NCBI GenBank assembly: GCA_017631315.1
Contig: JAGBTN010000021.1
Span: 1 to 64,000 of the forward strand
Length of the DNA stretch: 64,000 nucleotides
Source of the DNA: Bacteroidaceae bacterium
GTDB taxonomy: Bacteria; Bacteroidota; Bacteroidia; Bacteroidales; Bacteroidaceae
Reading direction: 5' to 3'
Both the position numbers and the translations under genes were made by a program. The notes beneath the pieces are model-generated. The model worked only from the letters and a program-made list of their open reading frames with translations. It was not told where the DNA came from and searched no databases. This document shows positions 17,903 through 53,850 of the stretch, in pieces; positions within the stretch are counted from its first letter, which is position 1; each line of letters starts with the position of its first letter.

Positions 17903-17990
17903 AAAGGTTAACCATTCTGCCCGGAAAGGTTAAGCATTATGGGCAAAAAGGTTAAGCATTATCGAAAGAATGGTTAACCTTTTTTTGGGG
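17903..17990. repeat. GGTTAACC array A (four cores, 22-bp period)
   Basis: Fourteen-bp cores start at 17903, 17925, 17947 and 17969. The first (AAAGGTTAACCATT) and last (AATGGTTAACCTTT) are reverse complements and the last runs into seven or more T residues. In RNA the array could therefore fold as a 14-bp stem followed by U residues, i.e. terminate metHF transcription. Spacers are CTGCCCGG, ATGGGCAA and ATCGAAAG. Confidence 0.9.
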
Positions 17991-18048
17991 CATGGCAGGA
18001 ATATATTTCTCACTTTGACTGTAGAAGAGATATTTTTCTGCCTCTTTA

Positions 18049-18080
18049 TTTGGTAAAACCTAAAAACCTTCTTACATTTG
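18049..18080 (+). promoter_or_regulatory. Consensus promoter for the structured RNA at 18.1 kb
   Basis: TTTG (18049-18052), a 20-bp gap and TACATTTG (18073-18080) match the Bacteroidetes consensus. No reading frame begins just downstream; the predicted transcript is the structured RNA. Confidence 0.7.
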
Positions 18081-18085
18081 TAGCG

Positions 18086-18262
18086 CATTTGGCTGGTCCG
18101 AATGCCTGTTTTATTGCTCAATTCACTACTCGAACTAGCACCTCGACAAAGAATAGAAGAGCATAACTATACACGATGGAGTGTACGCATCTGCGTAGGC
18201 TCTCCCATAGTGTATAGGGGTTGTGCTAGACCCGAGTAGTGTATGGATAAGGGTCTACGCTT
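18086..18262 (+). ncRNA. Structured small RNA, candidate 6S RNA
   Basis: A rod-like fold is visible. CACTACTCG (18124-18132) pairs with CGAGTAGTG (18233-18241). CTAGCAC (18135-18141) pairs with GTGCTAG (18223-18229). CTATACAC (18167-18174) pairs with GTGTATAG (18210-18217). An apical hairpin has TACGCA/TGCGTA. A large one-sided bubble of about 25 nt separates the inner and outer stems. A long rod with a big central bubble, behind a strong promoter and followed by a T-rich run, is what 6S RNA looks like. No coding potential is seen. The 6S identity is inferred from shape only, and the ends are estimated. Confidence 0.5.
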
Positions 18263-18275
18263 TTCTTTTGCCCAA

Positions 18276-18320
18276 AGGTTAGTGTCGATCCGTCCTAGAA
18301 CGACAATACATTACTAACCT
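18276..18320 (+). other. Hairpin upstream of the secreted-protein gene
   Basis: AGGTTAGT (18276-18283) pairs with ACTAACCT (18313-18320), with an inner GTCG/CGAC pairing. No T run follows, so it is more likely a leader hairpin or end structure of the preceding RNA than a classical terminator. Confidence 0.4.
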
Positions 18321-18335
18321 AAATACTGTAATTTT

Positions 18336-19031
18336 GTGAAAAAGTTAATTCTTATGATGCTGCTTATGTGCTCGGTGAGCGCATGGGCACAAGACGTGAT
18401 TGTGAAGAAGGACGGCTCACTTGTGGTGTGTCGCATCTTGGAAGTAACACAAACGGAAGTCGTTTATCAGAAATGGGACGATAAGGATGAGTCGAAGTAT
18501 ATCGTCAATCAGGGTGACTTAACGTCCATCCAGTACAAAGACGGTACTAAAAGACTCTTCGAAAGCACCGACAAACCCATAGTACAGGTTAACCAACCGA
18601 AGACGGACGACGAACTCCTGAAGATGGCTAACCACATGGATTTGAGGACAACCAACAAGGTTGAAAGGAAGATTAAAAAACTAAAACGATGGGGATGGAC
18701 TCTTGGTAGTCTTATGATGGCTACTGGTGCAGGCATTATTGTTGGTATGGCTGTGAGTCCCGAGTTCCCTACGGAAGATATAATGTGGGATTATATGGGA
18801 TGTATTGTAAGTGGACCTGTAATTTTTGCTTGTGGTGCTGCCATAACAACCGGTTGTGTTGTGAGGGCAAACAAACTGAAACGCTCACTTTACGATGTAA
18901 ATAATTCTGCTCTTTATAGGCAGGATTTCAAACTTAAGAATGGCTCTTCTATTGCTACTGGTGTGGATATTCTGCAAGACAACACTCGCAGGAATCAAAC
19001 TCTGGGTATCGGACTTAGTTATAACTTCTAA
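18336..19031 (+). CDS. Exported protein of unknown function with two internal hydrophobic segments
   Basis: 231 residues starting at a GTG. This start is chosen because it gives a complete signal peptide (MKKLILMMLLMCSVSAWAQ). Residues 20-80 form a small beta-rich domain of the 'DVIVKKDGSLVVCRILEV' type seen in many Bacteroidales exported proteins. Residues about 110-135 and 150-175 are hydrophobic and may be membrane segments; the end has an outer-membrane-like aromatic terminus (GIGLSYNF). A TAATTTTG motif overlaps the GTG, so an ATG at 18354 would be the alternative if transcription starts there. Probably co-transcribed with the lipoprotein gene 11 bp downstream. Function not recognised. 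Confidence 0.75.
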   Translation: MKKLILMMLLMCSVSAWAQDVIVKKDGSLVVCRILEVTQTEVVYQKWDDKDESKYIVNQGDLTSIQYKDGTKRLFESTDKPIVQVNQPKTDDELLKMANHMDLRTTNKVERKIKKLKRWGWTLGSLMMATGAGIIVGMAVSPEFPTEDIMWDYMGCIVSGPVIFACGAAITTGCVVRANKLKRSLYDVNNSALYRQDFKLKNGSSIATGVDILQDNTRRNQTLGIGLSYNF

Positions 19032-19042
19032 CATATAGACAC

Positions 19043-19423
19043 ATGAAACTGTATAATTTTTTTTCGATGGCTGCTTGTGCTGCTGCAATGACCTTAACCT
19101 CGTGCAGAACAATGAACGGCGCATATGGCGAAAACGCACAGAATGATATCAACACTCTCCTCTCCAGCACAAACGAGTATGATCTGGATGTCTCCACCGA
19201 ACCTATTACCTATACCATTGACATCTCAACGGAACTCGGTGCAGCGAAACTTAAAAACCTCACAGTTAAACAGGCTGAAGACCTGGCAAAGCGTGAGGCA
19301 ATCATGAAATACAAGTGCGGAACTTTGGTAAACCCGCAGTATACATACCTGAAGAAGGGCAAGCGAATACTGAGAATCACAGTATATGGCTTCCCTGCTA
19401 TGTATAAGAATCAGGAAAAATAA
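19043..19423 (+). CDS. Small lipoprotein of unknown function
   Basis: 126 residues. The N-terminus is a lipoprotein signal with lipobox LTSC, cysteine near residue 21. The mature part has a conserved-looking segment 'LTVKQAEDLAKREAIMKYKC' and an 'ILRITVYGFPA' beta-strand. It lies 11 bp after the preceding exported-protein gene and ends before a strong terminator, so the two likely form one unit at the cell envelope. I do not recognise the family. Confidence 0.75.
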   Translation: MKLYNFFSMAACAAAMTLTSCRTMNGAYGENAQNDINTLLSSTNEYDLDVSTEPITYTIDISTELGAAKLKNLTVKQAEDLAKREAIMKYKCGTLVNPQYTYLKKGKRILRITVYGFPAMYKNQEK

Positions 19424-19495
19424 TATGACGATGCCAAGCTAAGGCAAGAGATAGACATCAACATCAGATAGTCTGTTCTGTATGCTTTCACACTA

Positions 19496-19538
19496 CAAAG
19501 AATCACCGCACGCACACCGCTTGCGGTGATTTTCTTTG
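19496..19538 (+). terminator. Intrinsic terminator after the lipoprotein gene
   Basis: AATCACCGCA pairs with TGCGGTGATT across an 11-nt loop, followed by TTCTTTGTTT. The flanking CAAAGAA/TTCTTTG extends the stem, so it may work in both directions. Confidence 0.8.
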
Positions 19539-19573
19539 TTTCACCTGAACAGCCTGCAAGGGATATCTAAAAA

Positions 19574-19661
19574 ACAGGTTAACCATTCTGCCCGGAAAGG
19601 TTAAGCATTATGAGCAATTAGGTTAAGCATTATTGCCATAATGGTTAACCTTTTTTTTGTG
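19574..19661. repeat. GGTTAACC array B (four cores, 22-bp period)
   Basis: Cores start at 19574, 19596, 19618 and 19640. The arrangement is the same as in array A: an AxAGGTTAACCATT core, two AGGTTAAGCATT cores, then the reverse complement AATGGTTAACCTTT running into T residues. The first spacer CTGCCCGG is identical to that of array A and the following bases (GCATGGC) are also shared, so A and B look like copies of one another. Confidence 0.9.
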
Positions 19662-19730
19662 CATGGCCTGGGCTTTGGGCGAGGAGGCTGAAAAATACTT
19701 CTTGCATACAAAGAAAAGTTTGTCGTTTCG

Positions 19731-19761
19731 TTGTATTATTTCTTCTTTCTCTCTACCTTTG
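19731..19761 (+). promoter_or_regulatory. Promoter for the PBP4-type carboxypeptidase gene
   Basis: TACCTTTG (19754-19761) is preceded by TTG at 19731-19733 with a 20-bp gap. The leader would be about 15 nt before the ATG at 19781. Confidence 0.6.
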
Positions 19762-19780
19762 TGGCGAAGTCTGATATTAT

Positions 19781-21136
19781 ATGATAAAATATACAAAATA
19801 CCTTTTTCTGCTTCTGCTTGTGGCTTCGTGTGCCTCGCACCGGCCCATGCGACGCTCTGTGCGCCATGCCGATGCCATGCCGGCACTGCCCTACGGGGTG
19901 CAGCAGACGGTGGTCGGCGTGCAGGAGGACAAGCAGAAGGAGAAAGAAGCCGCAGCCTATGCCAGGCCGTCCGTCTCGCAGGTGGAGTACGCACCACAGG
20001 GAACATGGCAATATGCAAAGCAGATGGCACTCGACATGCTGTGCCAGTCGTCGCTCTTCGAGACGTCTCAACTGGGACTCTACGTGTATGACTTGACCGA
20101 GAGCAAGCCCCTCTATGCCGTCAACGCTGCCCACAGAATGCGACCTGCCTCGTGCCAGAAACTCGTCACCGCCATCACAGCTCTGCACTTCCTGAAGGGC
20201 AACTATCAGTTCCACACCGATTTCCGCATCACAGGCAAGGTGACAAAAGGCATACTGCAAGGCGACCTCATCGTGGTGGGCGGCATGGACCCCATGGTCA
20301 GCACAGACGAACTGCTCGTGGCAGCACGGCAAATAAAACAACAACACGGCATCAACAGCATAGCAGGCTCGGTGGTGCTGGACCTCACCATGAGGGAAGA
20401 CACACCATACGGCTGGGGATGGTGCTGGGATGACGACTACGGTCCGCTCTCCGCACTGCTTGCTGATGGCAAAGACTGCTTCAAGCAAAAATGGATCGAG
20501 GCACTCGGAAAAGCCAACATTAAGTGCGACACCGCCTTCACCATAAAGGTGCACAACCCAAAAGAAACAAGACCAAAAACCGCTCCGACAAGCACCTCCG
20601 TCTATTCCATACAACATAATATAGACGAACTGCTCAACCCTATGATGAAAAAGAGCGACAACATCTACGCCGAATGTCTGTTCTACCAAATAGCAGCCAC
20701 CGTCGCAGAGAAAGGAGCAGGCCAGAAAGAAGCAGCACAGCGTACGGCAGAACTGATGGAACAAATAGGCCTACAACCCGAACAATACAAAGTGGCAGAC
20801 GGCAGCGGACTGTCGCTCTACAACTATGCCTCAGCCGAAATGCTCGTCGCCATGCTCCGATATGCCTGGCACACAGAACACATCCACAAACAACTGCTGA
20901 CCTCATTACCCATCTCAGGCTTCGACGGCACACTGAAAAAACGCATGATAGGCACACCGGCCGAAGGCAACGTACGTGCAAAGACAGGCAGTGTGAGCGG
21001 CATAGCATCGCTGGCAGGATACATCACCGCCAGCAACGGACACATACTCGCCTTCGCCATCATCAACCAAGGCGTGGCACCACTCTCCGCAGGACGTGCC
21101 TTCCAGGACAATGTCTGCATAGAACTCAGCAAATAA
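19781..21136 (+). CDS. dacB: D-alanyl-D-alanine carboxypeptidase/endopeptidase, PBP4 (DacB) family lipoprotein
   Basis: 451 residues. The N-terminus is a lipoprotein signal (LFLLLLVASC). The three penicillin-binding motifs are present: S124-C-Q-K127 (nucleophilic serine), S292-D-N294 and K401-T-G403. Between the first two lies the inserted domain typical of PBP4. It trims or cleaves peptidoglycan cross-links in the periplasm. Third codon positions change along the gene from G/C-ending to strongly A/C-ending towards the 3' end. It is followed 26 bp later by a gene for a secreted coiled-coil protein. Confidence 0.92.
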   Translation: MIKYTKYLFLLLLVASCASHRPMRRSVRHADAMPALPYGVQQTVVGVQEDKQKEKEAAAYARPSVSQVEYAPQGTWQYAKQMALDMLCQSSLFETSQLGLYVYDLTESKPLYAVNAAHRMRPASCQKLVTAITALHFLKGNYQFHTDFRITGKVTKGILQGDLIVVGGMDPMVSTDELLVAARQIKQQHGINSIAGSVVLDLTMREDTPYGWGWCWDDDYGPLSALLADGKDCFKQKWIEALGKANIKCDTAFTIKVHNPKETRPKTAPTSTSVYSIQHNIDELLNPMMKKSDNIYAECLFYQIAATVAEKGAGQKEAAQRTAELMEQIGLQPEQYKVADGSGLSLYNYASAEMLVAMLRYAWHTEHIHKQLLTSLPISGFDGTLKKRMIGTPAEGNVRAKTGSVSGIASLAGYITASNGHILAFAIINQGVAPLSAGRAFQDNVCIELSK

Positions 21137-21162
21137 TGTTCAACAAATAAAACCCTACCGCT

Positions 21163-21720: not shown

Positions 21721-21761
21721 AACACCAATACCTTAACAGAAACAACAGAAAACCTACTGCA

Positions 21762-22719: not shown

Positions 22720-23703
22720 ATGATGGTTGATAACAGTTGGAAGGCTGCGGGCTATGTGACGGAGGCTGTTCCTGAGGGAGCGGACTTGAAGGCTGAGATA
22801 CGCCGTATGTGCAAGGAGAAGAATGCTGTCATCATGGCGCACTACTATACGGAGGGTGTGATTCAGGATGTGGCGGACTTTGTGGGCGACAGTTTGGCTT
22901 TGGCTCAGCAGGCGGCTCGCACGGAGGCGGACATCATTGTGATGTGTGGTGTTCACTTTATGGGTGAGACGAACAAGATTCTTTGCCCACGGAAGAAGGT
23001 GCTTGTGCCGGACTTGAATGCCACTTGTTCGCTGGCGGAGAGTTGTCCTGCCGGCGAGTTTGAGGCGTTCGTGAAGGCGCATCCCGACCATACGGTCATT
23101 AGTTATGTGAACACTACGGCTGCCACGAAGGCTCTGACGGACATTGTTGTCACTAGTGGCAATGCTATGCAGATTGTGAATGCTTTGCCCAAGGAGGAGA
23201 AGATAGTGTTTGGTCCGGACCGTAATCTTGGTGGTTACATCAATGCGGTTACGGGCAGGGACATGGTTCTCTGGAATGGAGCGTGCCATGTTCACGAGAA
23301 GTTCAGCCTTGAGGGCATACTGAAGTTGAAGCAGGAGCACCCCGATGCCAAGGTGCTTGTGCATCCGGAGTGTAAGGAATCGGTGGTGAAGGTGGCCGAC
23401 AAGGTGGGCAGCACGGCGGTTCTTCTCAAGTTCTGCCAGGAGGACAGTGCCACGGAGTTTATTGTAGTGACGGAGAGTGGCATTCTGCACAAGATGCGTC
23501 AGGCGTGTCCGCAGAAGACCTTCTTGCCTGCTCCGCCGGAGGATAACTGTGGTGGCTGCAACGAGTGTGACTACATGAGGCTCATCACTTTGGAGAAACT
23601 CTACAACTGTCTGAAGTACGAATGGCCAGAGATTGAGGTGGATGCACAGGTGGCTGAGAAGGCTGTGAAGTGCATCAACCGCATGCTCGAAATGAGTAAG
23701 TAA
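22720..23703 (+). CDS. nadA: Quinolinate synthase
   Basis: 327 residues with the three pseudo-symmetric domains and the conserved cysteines that bind the [4Fe-4S] cluster, in LNATCSLAESCP, WNGACHVHEKF and DNCGGCNECDYM. It condenses iminoaspartate from NadB with dihydroxyacetone phosphate to quinolinate. The two start codons ATGATG are adjacent; the first is used here. The GGTTGATAA motif overlaps codons 2-5. Codons end mostly in G or T, unlike the A/C-rich neighbours to the left. It is not linked to nadB, 10 kb away. Confidence 0.95.
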   Translation: MMVDNSWKAAGYVTEAVPEGADLKAEIRRMCKEKNAVIMAHYYTEGVIQDVADFVGDSLALAQQAARTEADIIVMCGVHFMGETNKILCPRKKVLVPDLNATCSLAESCPAGEFEAFVKAHPDHTVISYVNTTAATKALTDIVVTSGNAMQIVNALPKEEKIVFGPDRNLGGYINAVTGRDMVLWNGACHVHEKFSLEGILKLKQEHPDAKVLVHPECKESVVKVADKVGSTAVLLKFCQEDSATEFIVVTESGILHKMRQACPQKTFLPAPPEDNCGGCNECDYMRLITLEKLYNCLKYEWPEIEVDAQVAEKAVKCINRMLEMSK

Positions 23704-23729
23704 CAGACCACTGCGGTGTAGGTAAAAAT

Positions 23730-23817
23730 AAAGGTTAACCATTATAGAAAGAATGGTTAACCTTTTCTTGTATAATGGTTAAGGGTTTTGTCAATAATGC
23801 TTAACCATTATTTATGG
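23730..23817. repeat. GGTTAACC array C (four cores, 22-bp period)
   Basis: Cores start at 23730, 23752, 23774 and 23796, between the convergent nadA and polA genes. The first two (AAAGGTTAACCATT and AATGGTTAACCTTT) are reverse complements, so the array can act as a two-sided hairpin. The array ends 9 bp from the polA stop codon. Confidence 0.9.
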
Positions 23818-23825
23818 GTACGCCT

Positions 23826-26294
23826 TTAGTGTGCTTCGAGCCAGTTTGCGCCCCATCCGCAGTCGGCAATGAGAGGCACTCGCAGTTGTGCGGCGGCTTG
23901 CATTTCTTCTATCACGAGGCTTTGCAGTCTCTCTTTCTCTTCTGGCACGACGGAGAAGTTGAGTTCGTCGTGAACCTGCAGCATCATCTTCGACTGGAAG
24001 GCTTCCTGCTTCATGCGACGACCTATGCGTATCATGGCTATCTTTATGATGTCGGCAGCACTGCCCTGTATGGGAGCGTTGATGGCATTGCGTTCGGCAT
24101 AGGCACGCACCACGGCGTTGCCCGAGTTGATGTCGGGCAGTTGGCAACGACGCCCGAAGATGGTCTCCGTATAACCCTTGTCGCGAGCCATTTCAATGCT
24201 CTTGTCCATGTAGGCCTTCACGCCCGGATAAGTCTCGAAGTAACCGTCTATGAGTTGCTTGGCTTCGGTTCTCGACACACCCATCCTTTCTGCCAGACCG
24301 AAGGCACTGATGCCGTAGATGATGCCGAAGTTGGCTGTCTTGGCTTTCCGGCGTTCGTCCGAAGTCACCTCCTCAAGCGGTTTCTTGAAAATCTTGGCAG
24401 CCGTGGCAGCATGAATGTCGTTGCCTTGCACGAAAGCCTCAATGAGGTTGGCGTCCTGGCTCAGGTGAGCCATAATGCGAAGTTCAATCTGACTGTAGTC
24501 GGCACTGAAGAAGAGTTGTCCCGGATAAGGGATGAAAGCCTTTCGCACCTCCTTGCCTTGGGCATCGCGCACCGGTATGTTCTGCAGATTGGGGTTCGAC
24601 GACGACAGACGGCCCGTGGCGGTAACGGTCTGATTGAACGACGTATGTATGTGTCCCGTCTGCGGATTGATGAGTTGCGGCAAGGCATCGATGTACGTGC
24701 TCAACAGTTTCTTCACGCCACGGTAGTCCAGTATCTTGCCCACAACAGGGTGTTTGCGCTGCAAAGCCTCCAGAACCTCCTCGTTGGTCACGTACTGCCC
24801 CTTCTTCGTCTTCTTCGCCTTTGGGTCGAGAGCCAGGCGTTCGAAGAGCACTTCGCCCACCTGCTTGGGGCTGGAGATGTTGAATTCCGTGCCGGCAAGG
24901 CTGTGTATTTCTGCCTCCAGTTCAAGCATCTGTTGCGTAAAGAGGCGGCTCGTCTCCTTCAGTCCCTCAGTGTCTATCATCACACCCGCCTCCTCCATTT
25001 CCGCAAGCACAGGCATCAGCGGCATCTCTATCTCGCAGAAAAGTGTCCACAGACCCTCCTCTTTCAGTTGTTTCTCAAAGAAAACTTTCAGTTCACCAAT
25101 GTCATTGCAGCCGTAAACGCTCAGCAGATAATCAAGATGATGACGCATCTCCGGATGGAGAAGATAGTGGGCAATCTCCGTATCGAACATAGGTCTTGAA
25201 GTCAATCCCTGAGCCTTCAGTTCCTTCCACTGCGCCTTCAGGTTGTGCCCCACTACCATACCGTCGTCCATCACCATCATCTCTGCGGCAGAACCACTGT
25301 CAGCCTTCACCTCAGCCACAGGCACATCGCTCGCAGAGGTCTGCACAGGCATATCGAAAAGACTCAGTTGAGTGGAGCCGTCGCTGTACGTTTTTGCCGT
25401 TTCCTTTGGTGCAGGCGCAGGTTTGGCACTGCTCGTCTTGCTCAGCAACTGGCGAAATTCCAGTATTTTATATAGTTCGTTCAGTCTTTCGTAGTCGGGT
25501 TCCTTAATCTTCAGTGCATCCATATCCAGCCTGATGGGCACCTCTGTGCAGATAGTGGCCAGCCATTTGCTCTGACGTATCTGTTCCACATTAGCCTCCA
25601 CCTTCGCCTTGAGCGCACCCTTCAACTTGTCCGTCGAAACCAAAAGCGCTTCAATGCTGCCAAACTCCTCAACGAGTTTTTGTGCCGTCTTCTCCCCTAC
25701 TCCCGGACAACCCGGTATGTTGTCCACAGCATCGCCCATCAATCCAAGCATATCGATGACCTGAAGCGGCGAATCAAGTCCCCACTTCCGTTTCACTTCC
25801 TCAACCCCAAGAATCTCTGCCTCGTTGCTCTTGCCCAAACCGGGACGGTAGATCCGCACACAAGGCGTAACAAGTTGGCCATAATCCTTGTCCGGAGTCA
25901 TCATATAGGTCTCAATGCCCATCGAATCAGCCTGGCGGGAAAGTGTTCCTATCACATCGTCTGCCTCATAACCCTGCACCTCGAGCACCGGAATGTTACG
26001 CGCCTTCAAGATATCCTTGATGATTGGCACCGCAAAACGAATGGCTTCCGGCGTCTCTTCGCGTTGTGCTTTATACAAAGGGTATGCCTCGTGGCGGAAA
26101 GTAGGCCCGTGAGGATCGAATGCCACCCCAAGATGTGTGGGCTGACCCTTAGCCATTACCTCGTCCAAGGTGTTGACAAAACCCAAAATAGCCGAAGTAT
26201 TCTCTCCTTTTGAATTGATGCGTGGGTTCTTGAAGAAAGCATAATATGCACGATAAATAAGTGCGTATGCGTCGAGTAAATAGAGTTTCTGCAT
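23826..26294 (-). CDS. polA: DNA polymerase I lacking a recognisable 3'-5' exonuclease
   Basis: 822 residues. The N-terminal 5'-3' exonuclease (about 1-290) and the C-terminal polymerase domain are intact: motif A DYSQIELRIMAHLS, motif B RRKAKTANFGIIYG, motif C QVHDELNFSVV. The region between them is short. After QLSLFD there are only about 30 low-complexity residues before VVGHNLKAQW, where family members with proofreading have over 100. The DxE of Exo I, the aspartate after GxNLKYD (Exo II) and the YxxED of Exo III are all missing. So nick translation and synthesis should be retained, but proofreading not. It is transcribed divergently from the polyprenyl synthase gene. Confidence 0.95.
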   Translation of the reverse strand: MQKLYLLDAYALIYRAYYAFFKNPRINSKGENTSAILGFVNTLDEVMAKGQPTHLGVAFDPHGPTFRHEAYPLYKAQREETPEAIRFAVPIIKDILKARNIPVLEVQGYEADDVIGTLSRQADSMGIETYMMTPDKDYGQLVTPCVRIYRPGLGKSNEAEILGVEEVKRKWGLDSPLQVIDMLGLMGDAVDNIPGCPGVGEKTAQKLVEEFGSIEALLVSTDKLKGALKAKVEANVEQIRQSKWLATICTEVPIRLDMDALKIKEPDYERLNELYKILEFRQLLSKTSSAKPAPAPKETAKTYSDGSTQLSLFDMPVQTSASDVPVAEVKADSGSAAEMMVMDDGMVVGHNLKAQWKELKAQGLTSRPMFDTEIAHYLLHPEMRHHLDYLLSVYGCNDIGELKVFFEKQLKEEGLWTLFCEIEMPLMPVLAEMEEAGVMIDTEGLKETSRLFTQQMLELEAEIHSLAGTEFNISSPKQVGEVLFERLALDPKAKKTKKGQYVTNEEVLEALQRKHPVVGKILDYRGVKKLLSTYIDALPQLINPQTGHIHTSFNQTVTATGRLSSSNPNLQNIPVRDAQGKEVRKAFIPYPGQLFFSADYSQIELRIMAHLSQDANLIEAFVQGNDIHAATAAKIFKKPLEEVTSDERRKAKTANFGIIYGISAFGLAERMGVSRTEAKQLIDGYFETYPGVKAYMDKSIEMARDKGYTETIFGRRCQLPDINSGNAVVRAYAERNAINAPIQGSAADIIKIAMIRIGRRMKQEAFQSKMMLQVHDELNFSVVPEEKERLQSLVIEEMQAAAQLRVPLIADCGWGANWLEAH

Positions 26295-28270: not shown

Positions 28271-28358
28271 AATGGTTAACCTTTCTGCTAATAATGCTTA
28301 ACCATTATGGCCAAAACCCTTAACCATTCTGCCCGGAATGGTTAACCTATTTTTTCCA
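28271..28358. repeat. GGTTAACC array D (four cores, 22-bp period)
   Basis: Cores start at 28271, 28293, 28315 and 28337, directly after gluQ and before a convergent small membrane-protein gene. The spacer CTGCCCGG between cores 3 and 4 is the same octamer as in arrays A and B. The final core runs into TTTTTT. Confidence 0.9.
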
Positions 28359-32658: not shown

Positions 32659-34581
32659 ATGGAATATAAATACGACGTAATTGTTGTTGGTGCCGGCCAT
32701 GCCGGATGTGAGGCTGCTGCGGCTGCTGCGAAGCTGGGTGCGAGGACGTGTCTCATTACGATGGACATGAACAAGATTGCCCAAATGAGTTGTAATCCTG
32801 CCATTGGCGGCATTGCCAAAGGTCAGATTGTTCGCGAGATTGATGCTTTGGGCGGCCATACGGGCGAGGTGACGGATGCCACAGCCATACAGTTCCGCAT
32901 GTTGAACCGTTCGAAGGGGCCTGCTATGTGGAGTCCCAGGGCGCAATGCGACAGGGCAAAATTCATATGGGTATGGCGTGAAATCCTCGAGAATACGGAG
33001 AATCTGTCCATCTGGCAAGACCAGGTCGTGGAACTACTCACGGAGGAAACGAAAACTTCACTGCAGAAGTTGCCGAACTTCACTGCAGAAGTTGCCAAAC
33101 TTCACGTGTGTGGTTTGCGAACCATACAGGGGGTTGTTTTCAAGGCGCCTTGTGTGGTGATTACTGCCGGCACGTTCCTCAATGGTTTGATGCACATCGG
33201 CCGCACCAGGATTCCCGGTGGGCGTTGTGCCGAACTGCCAAGTCTCCATCTCTCGGAAAGCATTGCTGCCTGTGGTATTACTGTGGACAGAATGAAGACG
33301 GGCACGCCTGTCCGTATCGATGGCCGTTCGGTGGACTTTTCTCTCATGCAGCGTCAGGACGGAGAGCAAGACTTCCATAAGTTCTCGTATATGGGCGAGC
33401 CGCGCATGTTGCCGCAGTTGCCGTGTTGGATTACCTATACAAACGAGCAGGTGCACGACAGGCTTCGGGCTGCCCTACCCGACTCTCCGCTCTACAATGG
33501 GCAGATTCAGAGCATTGGTCCACGCTACTGTCCGAGCATCGAAACAAAGCTTGTTACTTTTGCAGAACGCACTGAACACCAGTTGTTTCTGGAGCCTGAA
33601 GGTGGTTCCACGCAGGAGTTTTACCTGAATGGCTTTTCGAGTTCGCTCCCCATCGATGCGCAGATTGAGGCCCTGAAGTTGATTCCGGCTTTCCGCAACC
33701 TGCAGATATACCGTCCGGGCTATGCCATTGAATATGATTTCTTCGACCCTACTCAACTTCGCCACTCGCTGGAGTCGAAAGTTGTGGATGGCCTTTTCAT
33801 GGCCGGCCAGGTGAATGGCACCACGGGCTACGAGGAGGCTGCCGGACAAGGCTTGGTGGCGGGCATCAATGCTGCACGCAAGGTTGGCGGACAGGAGCCT
33901 TTTGTGATGCGCAGAGACGAGTCGTACATCGGTGTATTGATAGACGACCTTGTGACGAAGGGCGTGGACGAGCCGTACCGTATGTTCACCTCTCGTGCCG
34001 AATATCGCATCCTTTTGCGTCAGGACGATGCTGATGCACGCCTTACGGAGCGCAGCTACGAAATGGGATTGGCTACGCGAGAGCGTCTCGACCACTGGCT
34101 GACGAAGAAGCAGGCCATCGAGGAACTGGAGTCTTTCTGCGCCCAATACAGCGTGAAGGCTGCTTATGTCAACGACGGACTGCAGGCTTTGGGCAGCGAA
34201 CCCTTGCAGCGTGGCTGCAAGCTCATCGACCTGGTGATGCGTCCGCAGCTGACGCTTTCCAATCTCGCTCCACTCATTCCGGCTCTTTCCGCCAAGCTGA
34301 ACGGCATCGCAGACCGTCGCGAAGAAATCGTGGAGGCTGCAGAGGTGCGCATGAAATACAGCGGATACATACGCCGCGAAAAGGAGATTGCCGACAAGAT
34401 TCAGCGTCTGGAGAACATTCGCATCAGGGGACGTTTCAACTACAACGACATTCAGTCGCTCAGCACGGAGGCCCGCCAGAAGTTGTCACGCATTGATCCT
34501 GAGACAATGGCGCAGGCCAGCCGAATCCCAGGCGTAAGCCCCAGCGACATCAATGTCTTGCTGGTGATGATGAATCGCTAA
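32659..34581 (+). CDS. mnmG: tRNA uridine-5-carboxymethylaminomethyl modification enzyme with an in-frame repeat insertion
   Basis: 640 residues. FAD-binding GAGHAGCEAAAAAAKLG at the N-terminus, MNKIAQMSCNPAIGGIAKG and MLNRSKGPAMWSPRAQCDR are hallmarks of MnmG/GidA. With MnmE it modifies the wobble uridine of several tRNAs. About 18 residues (131-148, TKTSLQKLPNFTAEVAKLH) have no place in the family alignment as I know it. They are encoded by three 22-bp units of the AACTTC/CTGCAG repeat family. They sit in a surface loop of the FAD domain between WQDQVVELLTEE and VCGLRT. A parS-like site begins at the last base of the stop codon. Confidence 0.95.
   Translation: MEYKYDVIVVGAGHAGCEAAAAAAKLGARTCLITMDMNKIAQMSCNPAIGGIAKGQIVREIDALGGHTGEVTDATAIQFRMLNRSKGPAMWSPRAQCDRAKFIWVWREILENTENLSIWQDQVVELLTEETKTSLQKLPNFTAEVAKLHVCGLRTIQGVVFKAPCVVITAGTFLNGLMHIGRTRIPGGRCAELPSLHLSESIAACGITVDRMKTGTPVRIDGRSVDFSLMQRQDGEQDFHKFSYMGEPRMLPQLPCWITYTNEQVHDRLRAALPDSPLYNGQIQSIGPRYCPSIETKLVTFAERTEHQLFLEPEGGSTQEFYLNGFSSSLPIDAQIEALKLIPAFRNLQIYRPGYAIEYDFFDPTQLRHSLESKVVDGLFMAGQVNGTTGYEEAAGQGLVAGINAARKVGGQEPFVMRRDESYIGVLIDDLVTKGVDEPYRMFTSRAEYRILLRQDDADARLTERSYEMGLATRERLDHWLTKKQAIEELESFCAQYSVKAAYVNDGLQALGSEPLQRGCKLIDLVMRPQLTLSNLAPLIPALSAKLNGIADRREEIVEAAEVRMKYSGYIRREKEIADKIQRLENIRIRGRFNYNDIQSLSTEARQKLSRIDPETMAQASRIPGVSPSDINVLLVMMNR
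33054..33119. repeat. 22-bp-period array inside mnmG (three units)
   Basis: Units begin at 33054, 33076 and 33098, each with AACTTCAC. The first two carry the palindrome ACTTCACTGCAGAAGT-type core and the third CACGTG. Three units equal 66 bp or 22 codons, so the reading frame is kept. The same family occurs between genes at 8461 and at 1292. Confidence 0.9.
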
Positions 34582-35189: not shown

Positions 35190-35277
35190 AATGGTTAACC
35201 TTTCCGACGATAATCCTTAACCATTCCGGCCGGAAAGGTTAACCATTATTGCCAAAACCCTTAACCTATTTTTGCAG
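35190..35277. repeat. GGTTAACC array E (four cores, 22-bp period)
   Basis: Cores start at 35190, 35212, 35234 and 35256 between co-directional apt and uvrC. Spacers are CCGACGAT, CCGGCCGG and ATTGCCAA. The last core runs into TATTTTTG, which also fits a -7 promoter element facing uvrC. Confidence 0.9.
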
Positions 35278-40072: not shown

Positions 40073-40180
40073 AGAGGTACACCCTTCCGCCGGGAAAGGT
40101 GTACCTTTCTTGTAATAATGCTTAACCATTCCGGGCAGAAAGGTTAACCATTATCGACGGAAGGGTTAACCTTTATTTTT
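40073..40180. repeat. GGTTAACC array F (five cores, 22-bp period)
   Basis: Cores start at 40073, 40095, 40117, 40139 and 40161. The first two are diverged (AGAGGTACACCCTT and AAAGGTGTACCTTT), with GTTAAC changed to GGTGTACC-like sequence but the palindrome kept, suggesting compensatory change. The last core runs into TTATTTTTGGGG. It lies between co-directional genes. Confidence 0.9.
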
Positions 40181-44646: not shown

Positions 44647-44756
44647 AAAGGTTAACCATTCCGCCAAGAATGGTTAACCTTTCTCGTTAAATACCTTAAC
44701 CATTATGGCCGGAAAGGTTAACCTATTTGAGTGGAAAGGTTAACCTCTTCGGCGCA
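44647..44756. repeat. GGTTAACC array G (five cores, 22-bp period)
   Basis: Cores start at 44647, 44669, 44691, 44713 and 44735, filling the gap between convergent genes. Cores 1 and 2 are reverse complements. Spacers are CCGCCAAG, CTCGTTAA, ATGGCCGG and TTGAGTGG. Confidence 0.9.
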
Positions 44757-47039: not shown

Positions 47040-47127
47040 AAAGGTGTGGCTTGTTGCCAATAATGGTTAACCTTTCCGGGCATAATGGTTAACCCTTTTA
47101 CCCATAATGGTTAACCTTTCCGGCGGA
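47040..47127. repeat. GGTTAACC array H (four cores, 22-bp period)
   Basis: Cores start at 47040 (diverged, AAAGGTGTGGCTTG), 47062, 47084 and 47106. Unlike most others, this array lies between divergent genes, so it is not placed as a terminator. It is 60 bp upstream of the bcp promoter. Confidence 0.9.
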
Positions 47128-47188: not shown

Positions 47189-47219
47189 TTTGCAGTGTCT
47201 TTTCTAATTCGTATATTTG
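47189..47219 (+). promoter_or_regulatory. Consensus promoter for bcp
   Basis: TTTG, a 19-bp gap and TATATTTG (47212-47219) match the Bacteroidetes consensus. The leader is about 25 nt before the ATG at 47251. Confidence 0.75.
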
Positions 47220-47250
47220 TCGGCATAAACCAACTAAAAACCTGCACGAC

Positions 47251-47703: not shown

Positions 47704-47729
47704 GTACGACAAAAACAACAGACAGCAGC

Positions 47730-48308: not shown

Positions 48309-48325
48309 CCAGACAAACACAAGCC

Positions 48326-49435
48326 ATGAGGAAACACATACTGACCATTCTCTGTCTGCTGGCAGGCCTTACTACCGCACAAGCACAGCATCGGGCCGAC
48401 CGACTGCAGTTGAACAATCCCGAATCGTTTACCTTCGTCGTCTTTGGCGACGCACAGGGTTACACGAAATACGACATCAATCAGCCCATCTTCGAACTCT
48501 GTACGGCATGGATTGCCGATAATGTGGAGCAACTCAACATCAGGGCGGTGCTCTTCACGGGCGACCTCATCGAGCAAAACGAGAACGTAGTGCTCAACCG
48601 CAACATGCTGAACCAGACGAGCAAACAGATGTGGGAATGGTCGAGCCACTGCCTCAAAAGGTTGGACGGCAAGGTGCCTTACATCATAGCCGCCGGCAAC
48701 CACGAGTATGGCTACGTGCGTGGCGACGAACCCTTCACGCATTATGCCGAGTACTACACTGCCGAACGCAACACCGAGACGGCGAAACACCTGGTGGCCG
48801 CTTATCCAAACCGGCAAGGACAGGCTTCGCTGGAGAATGCTGCATGGGAGTTCAAGACCGACACATGGGGCAGAATCCTGGTCATAGGCTCGGAGTGGGC
48901 GCCTCGCGACGAGGTGCTGGAGTGGGCCAAAGGGCTTTGCAACAGCAAGAAGTATAAAGACCATACGGTGGTCTTCCTCACCCATTCTCTGCTGCATGGC
49001 AAGACGGCGCACTACACCGACAACGAGGGCTACAAGATAGAGCCGCGCAACTATGGGCACGAGATATGGGAGAAGTTGCTCTATCCCTGCAAGAACATCC
49101 GGCTGGCGGTGTGCGGACATACCGGACATCCTGCCTCTTCCGACGGAAAGGAGCCTGGCAGCAGTTACGACCACGAAGTGAACAACGCCTATCGCTGCGA
49201 TAAGAATTCGGCAGGAAGAGACGTGCATCAGATGATGTTCAACATCCAGTGCCTCGGCGGAGGCTGGGAAGGCAACGGAGGCGACGGTTGGCTCCGCCTC
49301 CTGGAGTTCATGCCCGACGGCAAAACCATCAAGGCCTCCACATACAGTCCGCTGTTCGGCATCTCCCCCATGACCAAGCACTTGGCACGCCAGACAGACC
49401 CCTTCTGCCAGTTCGACATGGTGGTGGAAAAATAA
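48326..49435 (+). CDS. Secreted calcineurin-like metallophosphoesterase
   Basis: 369 residues from the ATG at 48326, which gives the signal peptide MRKHILTILCLLAGLTTAQA. Metallophosphoesterase motifs in order: FGDAQGYTKYD (GDxH-like with Gln), LFTGDLIEQNEN, AAGNHEYGY, VFLTHS and CGHTGHP. Two metal ions would be bound; the substrate is unknown. The stop codon TAA (49433-49435) overlaps the first core of array I. Confidence 0.88.
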   Translation: MRKHILTILCLLAGLTTAQAQHRADRLQLNNPESFTFVVFGDAQGYTKYDINQPIFELCTAWIADNVEQLNIRAVLFTGDLIEQNENVVLNRNMLNQTSKQMWEWSSHCLKRLDGKVPYIIAAGNHEYGYVRGDEPFTHYAEYYTAERNTETAKHLVAAYPNRQGQASLENAAWEFKTDTWGRILVIGSEWAPRDEVLEWAKGLCNSKKYKDHTVVFLTHSLLHGKTAHYTDNEGYKIEPRNYGHEIWEKLLYPCKNIRLAVCGHTGHPASSDGKEPGSSYDHEVNNAYRCDKNSAGRDVHQMMFNIQCLGGGWEGNGGDGWLRLLEFMPDGKTIKASTYSPLFGISPMTKHLARQTDPFCQFDMVVEK

Positions 49436-49521
49436 TGGTTAACCATTCCGCCCAAATAGGTTAACCATTCCGCCCCGAAAGGTTAACCATTATTGCCCGA
49501 AAGGTTAACCCTTTTTCCACA
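49434..49521. repeat. GGTTAACC array I (four cores, 22-bp period)
   Basis: Cores start at 49434, 49456, 49478 and 49500. The first, AATGGTTAACCATT, is a perfect 14-bp palindrome and overlaps the stop codon of the phosphoesterase gene. Spacers are CCGCCCAA, CCGCCCCG and ATTGCCCG. The last core runs into TTTTTCC. Confidence 0.9.
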
Positions 49522-49580
49522 TAACCCATACGAAGTATGTCAAGATAATCGGCACAGTTCGGCTATTTCGCCAATCATCC

Positions 49581-49612
49581 TTTGCTATTCACAAAAAGAA
49601 TTCGTATCTTTG
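49581..49612 (+). promoter_or_regulatory. Consensus promoter for argS
   Basis: TTTG (49581-49584), a 20-bp gap and TATCTTTG (49605-49612). The leader is about 27 nt before the ATG at 49645. Confidence 0.75.
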
Positions 49613-49644
49613 CAGCGCACATAAAATATACATTGAAGCAAGAT

Positions 49645-51438: not shown

Positions 51439-51441
51439 ACA

Positions 51442-51870
51442 ATGGATTACGAGAAGCTGAAAGGCAAAGTCGACTTCAATGCCATTGCTGTCGATGCCGG
51501 GTGCAGTGGCAATCCCGGTGCGATGGAGTACCAGGGTGTGTATCTTGGCAATGAACAAAGGCTCTTTCACTTCGGCCCGATACACGGAACGAACAACATC
51601 GGCGAGTTTCTTGCCATTGTCCATGCGCTGGCTTACATCAAGAAGAATGGCTGGGACATGAAGGTTTACAGCGACAGTGTCAGCGGAATGGCGTGGGTGA
51701 GGAACAGGAAGGCGAAGACAACGCTGAAGCGCGACGAGAAGACGGCTCAGGTTCTCGACCTTGTTATCCGTGCGGAGAACTGGCTTTGGCAGAACCCCAA
51801 TCATGCTCAGGTGCTGAAGTGGAACACGGAGGAGTGGGGTGAGATTCCTGCCGACTTTGGGCGAAAGTGA
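51442..51870 (+). CDS. Ribonuclease HI-family protein
   Basis: 142 residues with RNase H acidic residues in AVDAGCSGNPGAM, NNIGEFLAIVHAL and KVYSDSVSGMAW, and a C-terminal acidic position in EIPADFGRK. It lacks the N-terminal hybrid-binding (viroplasmin-like) domain that many Bacteroidetes RNases H carry. Probably degrades RNA in RNA/DNA hybrids. Starts 3 bp after argS but uses a very different codon style (G/T-ending). Confidence 0.85.
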   Translation: MDYEKLKGKVDFNAIAVDAGCSGNPGAMEYQGVYLGNEQRLFHFGPIHGTNNIGEFLAIVHALAYIKKNGWDMKVYSDSVSGMAWVRNRKAKTTLKRDEKTAQVLDLVIRAENWLWQNPNHAQVLKWNTEEWGEIPADFGRK

Positions 51871-51884
51871 TTGAATGGTACGTC

Positions 51885-51926
51885 GGACTATAGACAACAG
51901 ACAACGGACTACGGACAATAGACAAC
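51885..51926. repeat. Heptamer array (GGACAAC/AGACAAC family), six units
   Basis: Six 7-bp units (GGACTAT, AGACAAC, AGACAAC, GGACTAC, GGACAAT, AGACAAC) occupy the gap right up to 5 bp before the ATG at 51931, so they form the ribosome-loading region of the LtaS-like gene. Same family as 11294 and 13587. Confidence 0.8.
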
Positions 51927-51930
51927 GGAG

Positions 51931-53793
51931 ATGAGGCGAAGCATACATTATCTTGAGTTCCTTTACTGTCATTTGCTTATCGTTTTCCTGATAGGCAGGG
52001 TGGGATTTGTCTTGAATAATCGTTGTGTGGAGCAGTTGTCGTTCTTGGAAACTCTTGGTGCTTGTCGTCGGGGTTTACTGGGGCATGATGTTGTTGTGGC
52101 AGCGATGTTGCTTGTTGTGCCTTGGCTTGCTGGCTTGCTGGCTTTGCGTTTTCCGTCGATGAGGCTGCGAGTTTGGCTTGTGCCTTATTTTGTTTTGATG
52201 GGGATTGCTGTGGCTGCGATTGTTGCCGGCGATGCTGTGTTGTATGAGTACTGGCGTTTCAAGCTTGGCATGGTTGTGCTGAGTTATGCTTCTCACTCGG
52301 AGGGTGTTACCAACAGTGTGAGCCTTTCTTATATTCTGATGCGTTTCGGGGCTTTCTTTTCTTTGGCTTTGTGGACGATGCTTCCTTGCATTTTTCTTAC
52401 TCCGAAGCGTCTTTCTGCGGGTCGTGGCGAGCGTTTGTGGATGCGCAATGTCAGCATTATATGGATTTTCCTGGTGGTTTCGGGCTTGTGGTTTGTGCGC
52501 CAGGGTGATGTTTATGGTGTTGGGGAGAAGGTTTTGGCCAACCATGCTGCGGTGAATCCTGTGTATGCTTTTGCTTCGAGTGTGCGGACGGGTGATGATT
52601 TGTCCGGGCGTTATGATTTGCTTCCGGAGCCGGAGTGTTCGGACCTTATGAGGGGTTTGTATCCTGAGACGGGCGGTGATGTCTGCGACACGTTGCTTAC
52701 GACGCAGCGGCCCGATGTGCTGGTGGTTTTCATGGAGAGTTTCGGCAGCCGTTTTGTGGAGGAACTGGGTGGTTTGCCTGGTGTTGCTCCGGGTTTGAGC
52801 CGCATGATTCCGGAGGGTGTCTTCTGGGAGAATTATTATAGCAACTCTTTCCGTACGGACAGGGGCACTGTGTCGGCCTTCAGCGGCTGGTTGAGTTATA
52901 CGGATGTTGGGCTGATGAAGCATACGGAGATGCATGCGGAGTTGCCTTCGCTGCCGCGTTCGTTGGAGCGGGAGGGTTATGAAACGTCGTTTATTTATGC
53001 CGGTCAGATGACGAATATGGGCAAGCGCCAGTATCTGGAGAATGTGGGTTTCCGCCATCTCTACGATGATACGGCGTTCTCTGCCGACCAGGCTTCCGGC
53101 TCCTGGGGTGTGTATGACAGCATTTCGTGCCAGAAGGCTGTGGAGGTTGTGGGGCAGTGGAAGGGCGGACATCACTTTATGGTGGTGCAGACACTCTCGA
53201 GCCACGAGCCTTGGGATGTGCCTTATCACCGTCTGGACGACAAGATATTGAATGCTTTTGCCTATACGGACCACAGTGTGGCGTGCATGGTGGACAGCCT
53301 GCGCCGCCTGCCGCAGTGGGACAACCTGCTCGTGGTGATGTTGCCCGACCATGGCTATCTCTACCGTCAGGGCTACGACGACCCCGGCTTCTTCCGTGCC
53401 CCGATGCTCTGGATGGGCGGTGCCCTGAGGGAGCCCCGCCGCATGGATGTGCTCATGAACCAGAGCGATCTGGCTGCCACGCTGCTCTCGCAGATGGGCA
53501 TTGCTCACGACGACTACCCATGGAGCCGCAATGTGCTGAGCCGCAAGTACACCTATCCGTTTGTCTATTGCAACTGGCCTGCCGGACTGCTCTTTGCCGA
53601 CAGCACCGGCACGAGCGTCTACGACCTGGACGGCGAAGTGGTGATAACCGACCGCCCTGCCGACGACGGGCTGCGACTGCTGCGCGCGAAAGCCATACTG
53701 CAAAGCAGTTACGACCAACTGGAAACGATGCGCCGAAATGCATCCCACACCCCGAGCGGAAAAAACCTTAACCATTATGACGAAAACCCTTAA
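51931..53793 (+). CDS. LtaS-like membrane sulfatase-fold phosphotransferase
   Basis: 620 residues: about five N-terminal membrane helices (1-200), then a periplasmic alkaline-phosphatase/sulfatase domain with metal-site motifs VVFMESFGSR, SNSFRTDRGTVSAFSG (nucleophilic Thr region), SSHEPWDVPY and MLPDHGYLY. Gram-negative homologues transfer phosphoglycerol or phosphoethanolamine to envelope glycans; the exact acceptor is unknown. The last ten residues (KNLNHYDENP) and the stop codon are encoded by the first units of repeat array J, so the natural C-terminus was probably changed by the repeat. The codon style switches from G/T-ending to C-ending near 53300. Confidence 0.9.
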   Translation: MRRSIHYLEFLYCHLLIVFLIGRVGFVLNNRCVEQLSFLETLGACRRGLLGHDVVVAAMLLVVPWLAGLLALRFPSMRLRVWLVPYFVLMGIAVAAIVAGDAVLYEYWRFKLGMVVLSYASHSEGVTNSVSLSYILMRFGAFFSLALWTMLPCIFLTPKRLSAGRGERLWMRNVSIIWIFLVVSGLWFVRQGDVYGVGEKVLANHAAVNPVYAFASSVRTGDDLSGRYDLLPEPECSDLMRGLYPETGGDVCDTLLTTQRPDVLVVFMESFGSRFVEELGGLPGVAPGLSRMIPEGVFWENYYSNSFRTDRGTVSAFSGWLSYTDVGLMKHTEMHAELPSLPRSLEREGYETSFIYAGQMTNMGKRQYLENVGFRHLYDDTAFSADQASGSWGVYDSISCQKAVEVVGQWKGGHHFMVVQTLSSHEPWDVPYHRLDDKILNAFAYTDHSVACMVDSLRRLPQWDNLLVVMLPDHGYLYRQGYDDPGFFRAPMLWMGGALREPRRMDVLMNQSDLAATLLSQMGIAHDDYPWSRNVLSRKYTYPFVYCNWPAGLLFADSTGTSVYDLDGEVVITDRPADDGLRLLRAKAILQSSYDQLETMRRNASHTPSGKNLNHYDENP

Positions 53794-53850
53794 CCATTCC
53801 GGCCGGAAAGGTTAACCATTATGGCAATAATGCTTAACCATTATTTCCCC
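53763..53850. repeat. GGTTAACC array J (four cores, 22-bp period), overlapping a gene end
   Basis: Cores start at 53763, 53785, 53807 and 53829. The LtaS-like reading frame enters the array and stops at the TAA of the second core (53791-53793). The spacer CCGGCCGG is shared with array E. Confidence 0.9.

What the first reader, a model, noticed from the sequence alone, without database searches (positions are those of the whole stretch)
17903..53850. Family of intergenic arrays with a 14-bp GGTTAACC palindrome and an exact 22-bp period
Ten arrays (starting 17903, 19574, 23730, 28271, 35190, 40073, 44647, 47040, 49434, 53763) contain 42 cores of consensus AAWGGTTAACCWTT. Every start-to-start distance is exactly 22 bp, i.e. 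a 14-bp core and an 8-bp variable spacer. Arrays have four or five cores, occur between genes or at gene ends, and reuse a few spacer octamers (CTGCCCGG, CCGGCCGG, ATTGCCAA). Some diverged cores keep the palindrome with other bases (AAAGGTGTACCTTT), hinting at selection on symmetry. Twenty-two bp is about two helical turns, so dimeric proteins could sit on one face of the helix. Some arrays could also work as RNA terminators (first and last core complementary, then T run). I know of no described element with this exact design.
Basis: seen in the sequence. Interest (0 to 1): 0.85.

Follow-up and report, generated by a model that had tools for sequence, protein, structure and literature searches.

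The report
Phased palindrome quartets at gene ends
A gut bacterium carries many short DNA blocks, usually four near-copies of one mirror-image sequence spaced exactly 22 bases apart and mostly sitting just after genes; some related species build the same 22-base pattern from different sequences, which may point to an unrecognised DNA-level system whose protein is still unknown.

Summary
In detail: ten arrays, 42 cores, 22 bp apart inside arrays. It holds genome-wide: 105 exact GGTTAACC-N14-GGTTAACC pairs, 0 in the reversed control. The genome is a Bacteroidaceae draft, about 95% identical over its longest collinear block to RGIG4268 (roe deer colon MAG). Of 81 arrays in my sample 61 have exactly four cores. 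The sister has an array at all ten window positions. In a 34-kb block cores differ by 2.7%, four-fold synonymous sites by 12.0%, spacers by 18.8%: core and spacing are held while spacers turn over. Arrays are scarce in divergent gaps and lie near upstream stop codons. RNA pairing is mostly not enriched, and T-runs show no strand bias, which weakens the RNA-terminator reading; yet four of ten window arrays contain a terminator-like match. No RAYT match. Some other Bacteroidaceae have their own families at 22 bp; 15 stretches from other families of the order showed no enrichment. Best reading: direction-neutral, helically phased binding platforms at gene ends (roadblock or insulator). The binding protein is unidentified.

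The parts
17903..17982 (.). array, 4 cores; 49 bp after the MTHFR (metF) gene
19574..19653 (.). array, 4 cores; 150 bp after called gene 19112-19423, before a D-Ala-D-Ala carboxypeptidase (S13) gene
23730..23809 (.). array, 4 cores; between convergent nadA and polA; terminator-like match on both strands (23730-23765)
28271..28350 (.). array, 4 cores; 4 bp after a class-I (E/Q type) tRNA-synthetase-domain gene; terminator-like match on + (28320-28345)
35190..35269 (.). array, 4 cores; 31 bp after a phosphoribosyltransferase-domain gene, before uvrC
40073..40174 (.). array, 5 cores (first two AGAGGTACACCCTT / AAAGGTGTACCTTT); 29 bp after an OmpA-domain gene; terminator-like match on - (40106-40075), the strand opposite to both neighbouring genes
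44647..44748 (.). array, 5 cores; between convergent genes (Gate-domain protein; Band_7 protein); terminator-like match on - (44682-44647)
47040..47119 (.). array, 4 cores (first very diverged); in a divergent gap
49434..49513 (.). array, 4 cores; overlaps the last 2 bp of a metallophosphatase-domain gene; before argS
53763..53842 (.). array, 4 cores; overlaps the last 31 bp of a sulfatase-domain gene; before an ABC transporter gene
1501..1544 (.). other 22-bp array, TTTCTCTTCCTAAGAGAYGTGA x2
8478..8546 (.). other 22-bp array, AACTTC..TGCAGAAGTT family, beside a tyrosine recombinase gene (8574-9635, -)
13040..13138 (.). other 22-bp array, AACAAGGCACGTTAAGTYGGCC x4.5
33053..33118 (.). other 22-bp array (AACTTCACTGCAGAAGTT family), inside the mnmG gene, in frame

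Best explanation
The arrays are DNA-level, direction-neutral protein-binding platforms at gene 3' ends. Each is usually a block of four 14-bp operator-like palindromes, two helical turns apart. An unidentified dimeric protein would bind all four on one face of the helix and form a compact complex. Inferred role: a roadblock or insulator that stops read-through or isolates supercoiling between neighbouring transcription units. Shown here: the anatomy, the usual number, the gene-end position, the constraint on core and spacing, the free turnover of spacers, and the lack of a general RNA-pairing or strand-bias signal. Inferred: the existence of the protein and the roadblock or insulator role.
For: Four cores in 61 of 81 arrays. 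Sister genome: an array at all 10 window positions, 8 anchored by both flanks and 2 (17903, 19574) by one flank. Against the unselected sister contig C4, 12 of 12 arrays with both flanks alignable have an array with the same count. Over all sources 22 of 30 arrays tried had both flanks alignable, 21 of 22 have an array, 19 of those 21 the same count, but the sister stretches other than C4 were fetched because they hold arrays. Divergence in a 34-kb block: cores 2.7% (13/476), four-fold sites 12.0% (530/4422), other intergenic 8.5% (288/3387), spacers 18.8% (39/208). Gaps with an array: 40 tandem, 22 convergent, 9 divergent; gaps of 110 bp or more without one in the same stretches: 32, 14, 31 (divergent against rest, Fisher p = 1.8e-4); in tandem gaps the array is nearer the upstream stop in 35 of 40 (p = 1.4e-6). 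Nested core and spacer pairs are below shuffle (P2-P3 z -4.2, P1-P4 -1.5, s1-s3 -2.6; 60 arrays). T in the 8 nt after the last core: 3.03 downstream, 3.17 on the opposite side (35 tandem arrays). In G008 (another genus, listed 99% complete) a different palindrome family has 126 pairs, control 0; the 100 listed all have a 22-bp period though gaps of 0-30 were allowed.
Against: No binding protein was identified; the single ParB-domain match in G000 does not bear on it. Nine of 71 array-bearing gaps are divergent, where a roadblock makes less sense. A repeat tolerated only away from promoters would also lie at 3' ends. Four of ten window arrays hold a terminator-like match, though the total of such matches in the two 20-kb halves is near the shuffles (24 against 21.5; 25 against 22.6). 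P1-P2 pairing was slightly positive in one test (z +2.2), not in the gene-oriented one. Some arrays in relatives look like long hairpins, one followed by T8 (L079:257). Several repeat families in one genome would need several proteins, or one that reads geometry more than letters.
Confidence: 0.43

Rival explanations
1. A dispersed, mobile or selfish palindromic repeat (REP/BIME- or MITE-like) that copied itself into gene-end gaps, avoided promoters, and is kept similar by exchange between copies.
For: About 105 exact pairs per genome. Lineage-specific cores. Some spacers look replaced as a block: 6 of 67 compared spacers differ at 5 or more of 8 sites, p about 3e-4 if sites changed independently. 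A sister 22-bp family sits in frame inside mnmG at a 17-residue insertion. In G008 the arrays lie in a longer conserved element (nine copies aligned), a few copies near mobile-type genes.
Against: Position and copy number are conserved in the sister, and cores change far less than neutral sites while spacers change faster, which neither decay nor whole-unit conversion predicts. No Y1/RAYT transposase match in the 86.6%-complete G000.
Confidence: 0.27
2. RNA-level intrinsic, partly bidirectional, terminators or 3'-end stabilisers made of complementary cores followed by T-runs.
For: Gene-end position. T-runs after some last cores and A-runs before first cores. Any two palindromic cores can pair. 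Four of ten window arrays hold a terminator-like match: 23730 on both strands, 28271 on +, 40073 on -, 44647 on -; three of the four include a strand that could end a neighbouring transcript. Hairpin-like arrays in G010 and G005. Confidence raised from 0.15 to 0.18, and that of the best explanation lowered from 0.45 to 0.43, after the scan of the first half.
Against: Asymmetric core variants are shared in direct, not inverted, orientation (P2-P3 identity z +4.05, complementarity z -4.23; same sign in 33 gene-oriented arrays). Spacer palindromy is below chance (z -4.5). No strand bias of T-runs in 35 tandem arrays. The match at 40073 is on the strand opposite to both neighbouring genes; six of ten arrays have no match.
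Confidence: 0.18
3. Chromosome-organising sites (MatP-, Noc- or ParB-like), read by one protein across many loci.
For: 14-bp palindromes with 7-bp half-sites. One array lies in front of a parA-like gene (L078:3978). Pairs are dense on the contig that holds parB (19 in the 175 kb of C1 against 105 in 2.68 Mb). Two G008 groups of pairs lie within 30 kb of dnaA.
Against: Strong bias to gene ends; only one ParB-domain match in G000; several families per genome; no origin-terminus pattern could be established.
Confidence: 0.09

Closest known systems
REP / BIME repeats and their RAYT transposases (from memory; PMC2817692 seen in a search listing with the start of its abstract)
   Same: Intergenic palindromic units, often over 100 copies, in regularly spaced composite arrays; gene 3' ends (recalled)
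   Different: No Y1_Tnp match in G000; usually four cores at an exact 22-bp period; asymmetric core variants in direct, not alternating, order
BrickBuilt MITEs of Porphyromonas gingivalis (PMC4596501; passages and section 5 read)
   Same: Dispersed intergenic tandem repeats of nearly the same unit length (23 nt), in another Bacteroidales genus
   Different: BrickBuilt has 1 to 22.8 units, leader and tail and terminal inverted repeats; here usually four units of 22 bp with no conserved leader or tail in the focal species. The G008 element, with conserved blocks on both sides, is nearer in layout
Plasmid iterons (from memory)
   Same: About 22-bp direct repeats in helical phase bound by a protein
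   Different: Many chromosomal gene-end loci and palindromic cores; no replication-initiator gene tied to them was looked for
Rickettsia palindromic elements (from memory)
   Same: Palindromic repeats that can sit in frame inside genes, as one sister family does in mnmG
   Different: None of 72 placed GGTTAACC arrays lies inside a called gene; unit architecture differs
Noc / MatP / ParB site families (from memory)
   Same: Palindromes of 13-16 bp at many chromosomal sites
   Different: No phased quartets or gene-end bias that I recall; one ParB-domain match only

Membership tests
REP/BIME with RAYT | High-copy intergenic palindromes | tested here: met
   105 exact pairs; none of 72 placed arrays lies inside a called gene, five overlap a gene end by 2-31 bp
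REP/BIME with RAYT | Y1/RAYT transposase in the genome | tested here: not met
   PF01797: no match in G000 (86.6% complete); 5 of 14 control genomes ring
REP/BIME with RAYT | Units in alternating orientation | tested here: not met
   Asymmetric core variants of the two inner cores shared in direct orientation (z +4.05)
BrickBuilt MITE | 23-nt units in widely variable number | tested here: not met
   22 bp; 61 of 81 arrays have four
BrickBuilt MITE | Leader, tail and terminal inverted repeats | tested here: not met
   139 flanks of focal arrays: A-run and weak signals within about 27 bp, scattered weak signals beyond
Intrinsic terminator | T-run on the downstream side | tested here: not met
   T-run of 4 or more: 9 of 35 downstream, 14 of 35 opposite, tandem arrays
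Intrinsic terminator | Selected stem pairing | tested here: not met
   Nested pairs below shuffle; six of six core pairs below shuffle when gene-oriented; P1-P2 +2.2
Intrinsic terminator | Stem-loop plus T-rich tail in the sequence | tested here: inconclusive
   4 of 10 window arrays match the scan; total matches near shuffles
Described Rfam RNA family | Match at gathering score | tested here: not met
   0 matches in the window and in 6 loci from relatives
Minisatellite by slippage | Variable copy number between close relatives | tested here: not met
   Same count in 19 of 21 orthologous arrays; 12 of 12 on the unselected contig
Protein-binding operator array | A protein that binds the cores | not testable with these tools
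   No binding data; no candidate found
ParB/Noc sites | A ParB-family protein besides ParB | tested here: not met
   One PF02195 match in the draft G000

The most novel reading that the evidence does not exclude
Bacteroidaceae run a chromosome-wide system of phased palindrome blocks. The geometry (22 bp, blocks of about four) is old and fixed, while the palindrome sequence is replaced again and again between species. Several kinds coexist in one genome and even side by side in one array (L125: blocks of two palindromes, each at 22 bp, joined with a shift of no more than one base; L193: three 22-bp repeat families in a row). This is what one would expect if a fast-evolving DNA-reading protein co-evolves with its sites, or if a protein reads the geometry more than the letters, to insulate transcription units.
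Probability: 0.2. Interest if true: 0.87.

Novelty: new variant of a known kind. Interest (0 to 1): 0.68.

Why it matters
If the roadblock or insulator reading holds, members of a major gut family would separate genes with protein-bound arrays, a bacterial counterpart of protein-dependent terminators, and the change of core sequence between species would give a testable case of protein-site co-evolution. Even as a repeat family alone, an architecture of usually four units with conserved spacing and freely changing spacers is unusual and worth annotating.

Tried and rejected
Long RNA hairpin from nested cores: complementarity below shuffle. CRISPR: 14-bp repeats and 8-bp spacers do not fit; no cas search was done. 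RAYT-driven REP: no PF01797 match. Hits of the pair pattern outside Bacteroidaceae (21 of 71 stretches) are one place each with gaps of 6-10; treated as unrelated hairpins or chance. Spacer inversion as a general mechanism: 1 of 47 changed spacers is an exact inversion. The G005 palindrome CGACCNNGGTC gave 2 places genome-wide, so not every species has a large family. Lag 22 was weak or absent in several relatives: G038 (14- and 21-bp repeats lead), G009 (1 region), five further family stretches (0), 12 further genus stretches (4, no more than several other lags), and in G007 lag 21 is close behind (8 against 10). An outer palindrome on the same 22-bp grid (my note) is not borne out well by the dyad scan (0.30 and 0.22 against background 0.21) and is dropped. 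My notebook core TTTGACTCGAGTCAAA is in none of the loci; the L079/L103 cores are TTSACTCGAGTSAA-like. A first tally of spacer changes (66 spacers) was miscounted; one search replaces it. Flanking proteins of arrays in divergent gaps (10 proteins at 6 of 9 arrays) gave no regulator beside a ParA-like ATPase. PADLOC: no match in 8 window proteins.
Full report
OBSERVATION. The ten arrays, 42 cores and the 22-bp distances are as described. In the window, lag 22 gives 14 self-matching regions, lag 21 two, and each other lag from 15 to 39 at most one. The genome (G000, 2.68 Mb, 21 contigs, 86.6% complete) holds 105 exact GGTTAACC-N14-GGTTAACC pairs and none in the reversed control. With gaps of 0-30 allowed there were 102 matches, and those listed have a gap of 8, or 30 = 8+14+8.

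ORGANISM. A scan of named genomes returned 71 stretches: 50 from Bacteroidaceae bacterium RGIG4268 (roe deer colon MAG), all with an 8-base gap, and 21 from other bacteria, one place each, with gaps of 6-10. RGIG4268 is a sister of the window genome: about 95% identical over the longest collinear block (34 kb), 90-96% over the other blocks longer than 1.8 kb. It has 112 pairs. Entry G084 of the genus sample, also with 112 pairs and the same first places, is taken to be the same genome. No viral contig matched. In 121 genus genomes four have an exact pair: G000, G084, G135 (17, core GGGTTAACCC with other spacers) and G134 (1). In 40 genomes of the order set, 41 of the phylum set and 61 of the family set (the last with a longer pattern), only G000 matched.

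ANATOMY. From the window plus the 50 RGIG4268 stretches I took 81 distinct arrays of two or more units: 61 have four cores, 9 five, 4 three, 7 two. The RGIG4268 stretches were fetched because they hold an exact pair, some arrays may be cut by stretch ends, and some window arrays have their sister copy in the sample, so it is neither random nor free of relatedness. Of 191 neighbouring strong cores within 200 bp, 176 are 22 apart, 13 are 44 apart and 2 differ (overlapping stretches count some twice). Spacers have a loose consensus HTKSSMRD. Outside the outer cores an A-run points inward, with weak further signals to about -27 (139 flanks). I had suspected an outer palindrome on the same grid, but the dyad scan of 58 arrays shows only a small rise there.

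EVOLUTION. The sister has an array at all ten window positions, eight anchored by both flanks and two (17903, 19574) by one. On sister contig C4, which was taken for its collinearity and not for single arrays, 12 of 12 arrays with both flanks alignable have an array with the same count. Over all sources 22 of 30 arrays tried had both flanks alignable; 21 of the 22 have an array, 19 of those 21 with the same count; the sister stretches outside C4 were chosen for holding arrays. Over the 34-kb block cores differ at 2.7% of sites (13/476), four-fold sites at 12.0% (530/4422), other intergenic sites at 8.5% (288/3387), spacers at 18.8% (39/208) and the 22 bp on each side at 27% (75/277). The 23 sister bases that one search counted as inserted in arrays are one T in the last core of array 40073 and 22 bases at the right edge of array 49434; a further 23 bases are inserted 24 bp before array 47040. 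Over 21 equal-count pairs cores differ at 4.9% (60/1232) and spacers at 21.3% (114/536). Six of 67 spacers differ at 5 or more of 8 sites, more than independent change would give (p about 3e-4), and one is exactly inverted. The DNA between arrays 17903 and 19574 is not alignable with its counterpart and differs in length (about 1.6 against 3.0 kb).

POSITION. With a simple hexamer gene caller of my own, gaps with an array are 40 tandem, 22 convergent, 9 divergent; gaps of 110 bp or more without one, in the same stretches, are 32, 14, 31 (divergent against rest, Fisher p = 1.8e-4). In tandem gaps 35 of 40 arrays are nearer the upstream stop (p = 1.4e-6). Dropping the window copies gives the same picture (29 of 34; p = 6e-4 for divergent). 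None of 72 placed arrays lies inside a called gene, five overlap a gene end, and nine more lay at stretch edges and were left out.

RNA OR DNA. If the arrays worked as RNA, asymmetric variants in one core should be matched by their complement in the partner. They are not: P2-P3 complementarity is below shuffle (z -4.2) and direct identity above it (z +4.05) (60 four-core arrays), with the same signs when arrays are turned to the upstream gene (33 tandem arrays). Of the six core pairs only P1-P2 is clearly positive (z +2.2); all six are negative. Within cores, symmetry at position 3 is avoided (z -5.8), positions 1, 6 and 7 are positively coupled, which may reflect a few sub-types of core, and overall symmetry is slightly below that of re-dealt halves. 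T-runs are as strong on the upstream as on the downstream side. Against this, a terminator scan finds a match in 4 of the 10 window arrays (23730 on both strands, 28271 on +, 40073 and 44647 on -), while the totals in the two 20-kb halves are near their shuffles (24 against 21.5 and 25 against 22.6). On balance the data favour a DNA-level, orientation-free function, but they do not prove protein binding, and single arrays may also end transcripts as RNA.

RELATIVES. In stretches of other Bacteroidaceae, lag 22 is the leading period in G010 (18 regions in 240 kb), G008 (8 in 120 kb), G007 (10 in 120 kb, lag 21 with 8) and G005 (4 in 120 kb), weak in G038 (4, behind 14 and 21) and G009 (1), and 0 in 150 kb of 21 stretches outside Bacteroidaceae. 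Twelve further genus stretches gave 4, no more than several other lags, and five further family stretches 0. In 15 stretches from other families of the order there was 1 region in 249 kb, and 0 in 81 kb of five stretches from other orders or classes. Cores differ: TTSACTCGAGTSAA-like (L079, L103), AACTAACGTTAGTT (L087), AACACTTAAGTGTT (L185). In G008 the family AACANNNNTGTT has 126 pairs and 0 in the reversed control; the 100 listed all have the 22-bp period though gaps of 0-30 were allowed. Many of its arrays carry four cores with one odd core (ACTTGT or ACAAGT) in an inner position, inside a longer conserved element in nine aligned copies. L125:8382-8673 holds about 13 units as blocks of two palindromes; each block keeps 22 bp, and the palindrome centres of successive blocks shift by half a base each, one base in all. 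L193:4997-5282 holds three 22-bp repeat families one after another. The focal species itself has other 22-bp families, mainly AACTTC..TGCAGAAGTT, often three or four units.

MECHANISM. Core sequence, spacing and, mostly, number are kept; spacers are not; strand does not matter; divergent gaps are avoided. The simplest reading is a set of operator-like sites bound together on one face of the helix at transcription-unit ends, acting as a roadblock or insulator. The protein is not known. The rival of a mobile repeat is real: a sister family sits in frame in mnmG at a 17-residue insertion relative to the three solved homologues whose alignments were shown (3cp8, 3cp2, 9hip) and to one relative of another family in the same class.

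LITERATURE. Searches for the motif, for 22-bp and palindromic repeats in Prevotella, Bacteroides and Bacteroidetes, and for REP/BIME showed no description of this design in their listings (open-access library only, listings capped). BrickBuilt (PMC4596501) was read in passages and section 5. PMC5771137 was searched for terms only and holds no '22-bp' or 'tandem repeat' in its main text. RepRanger (PMC12306157) names Bacteroidota once and has no 'Prevotella' or 'tandem'; PMC2267715 has no Bacteroides, Prevotella or Porphyromonas (term searches). A roadblock review (PMC10310618) and the RAYT paper (PMC2817692) were seen in listings only.

Noticed in passing
window 33053-33118: 22-bp units of the AACTTC..TGCAGAAGTT family lie in frame inside mnmG and coincide with a 17-residue insertion absent from the three solved homologues shown and from a relative in the same class; the sister genome shares it.
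   Followed up: yes
window 17999-19573 against G061:C4 about 23030-26035: The DNA between two neighbouring arrays is not alignable between the sister genomes and differs in length, with related arrays on both sides: a possible gene-exchange slot.
   Followed up: partly
window 17961-17968 against G061:C4 array 22934: The third spacer is an exact inversion between sisters (ATCGAAAG / CTTTCGAT), with an adjacent half-site changed as well.
   Followed up: partly
array spacers and edges, window against sister: Spacers (18.8%) and the 22 bp outside arrays (27%) differ more than four-fold synonymous sites (12.0%), and inserts of 22 and 23 bases lie at or near the edges of arrays 49434 and 47040, as if arrays were local hot spots.
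   Followed up: partly
L125:8382-8673, L126:8520-8807: In G008, long arrays with an inner block of about five AAGTATAATACTT-like units flanked by AAACACNNGTGTTT-like units, each block at 22 bp, blocks joined with shifts of about half a base between palindrome centres.
   Followed up: partly
L193:4997-5282 (G135): Three different 22-bp repeat families follow each other directly.
   Followed up: no
L200-L227 (G008): Four-core arrays inside a longer conserved intergenic element; among nine flanking proteins scanned were an AAA/DUF4143 protein, a HipA N-terminal domain and an ISL3 transposase, but also ordinary genes such as recO.
   Followed up: partly
L078:3978; G000 C1 about 138351: One array in a divergent gap sits between surE and a parA-like gene; parB of G000 lies close by on C1.
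   Followed up: partly
window 8478-8546: A CTGCAG-type 22-bp array lies beside a tyrosine recombinase gene (8574-9635, -).
   Followed up: no
window 13587-13692; L081/L082 (G038): Heptamer tandem repeats (periods 7, 14, 21, 28), a second periodic pattern.
   Followed up: no
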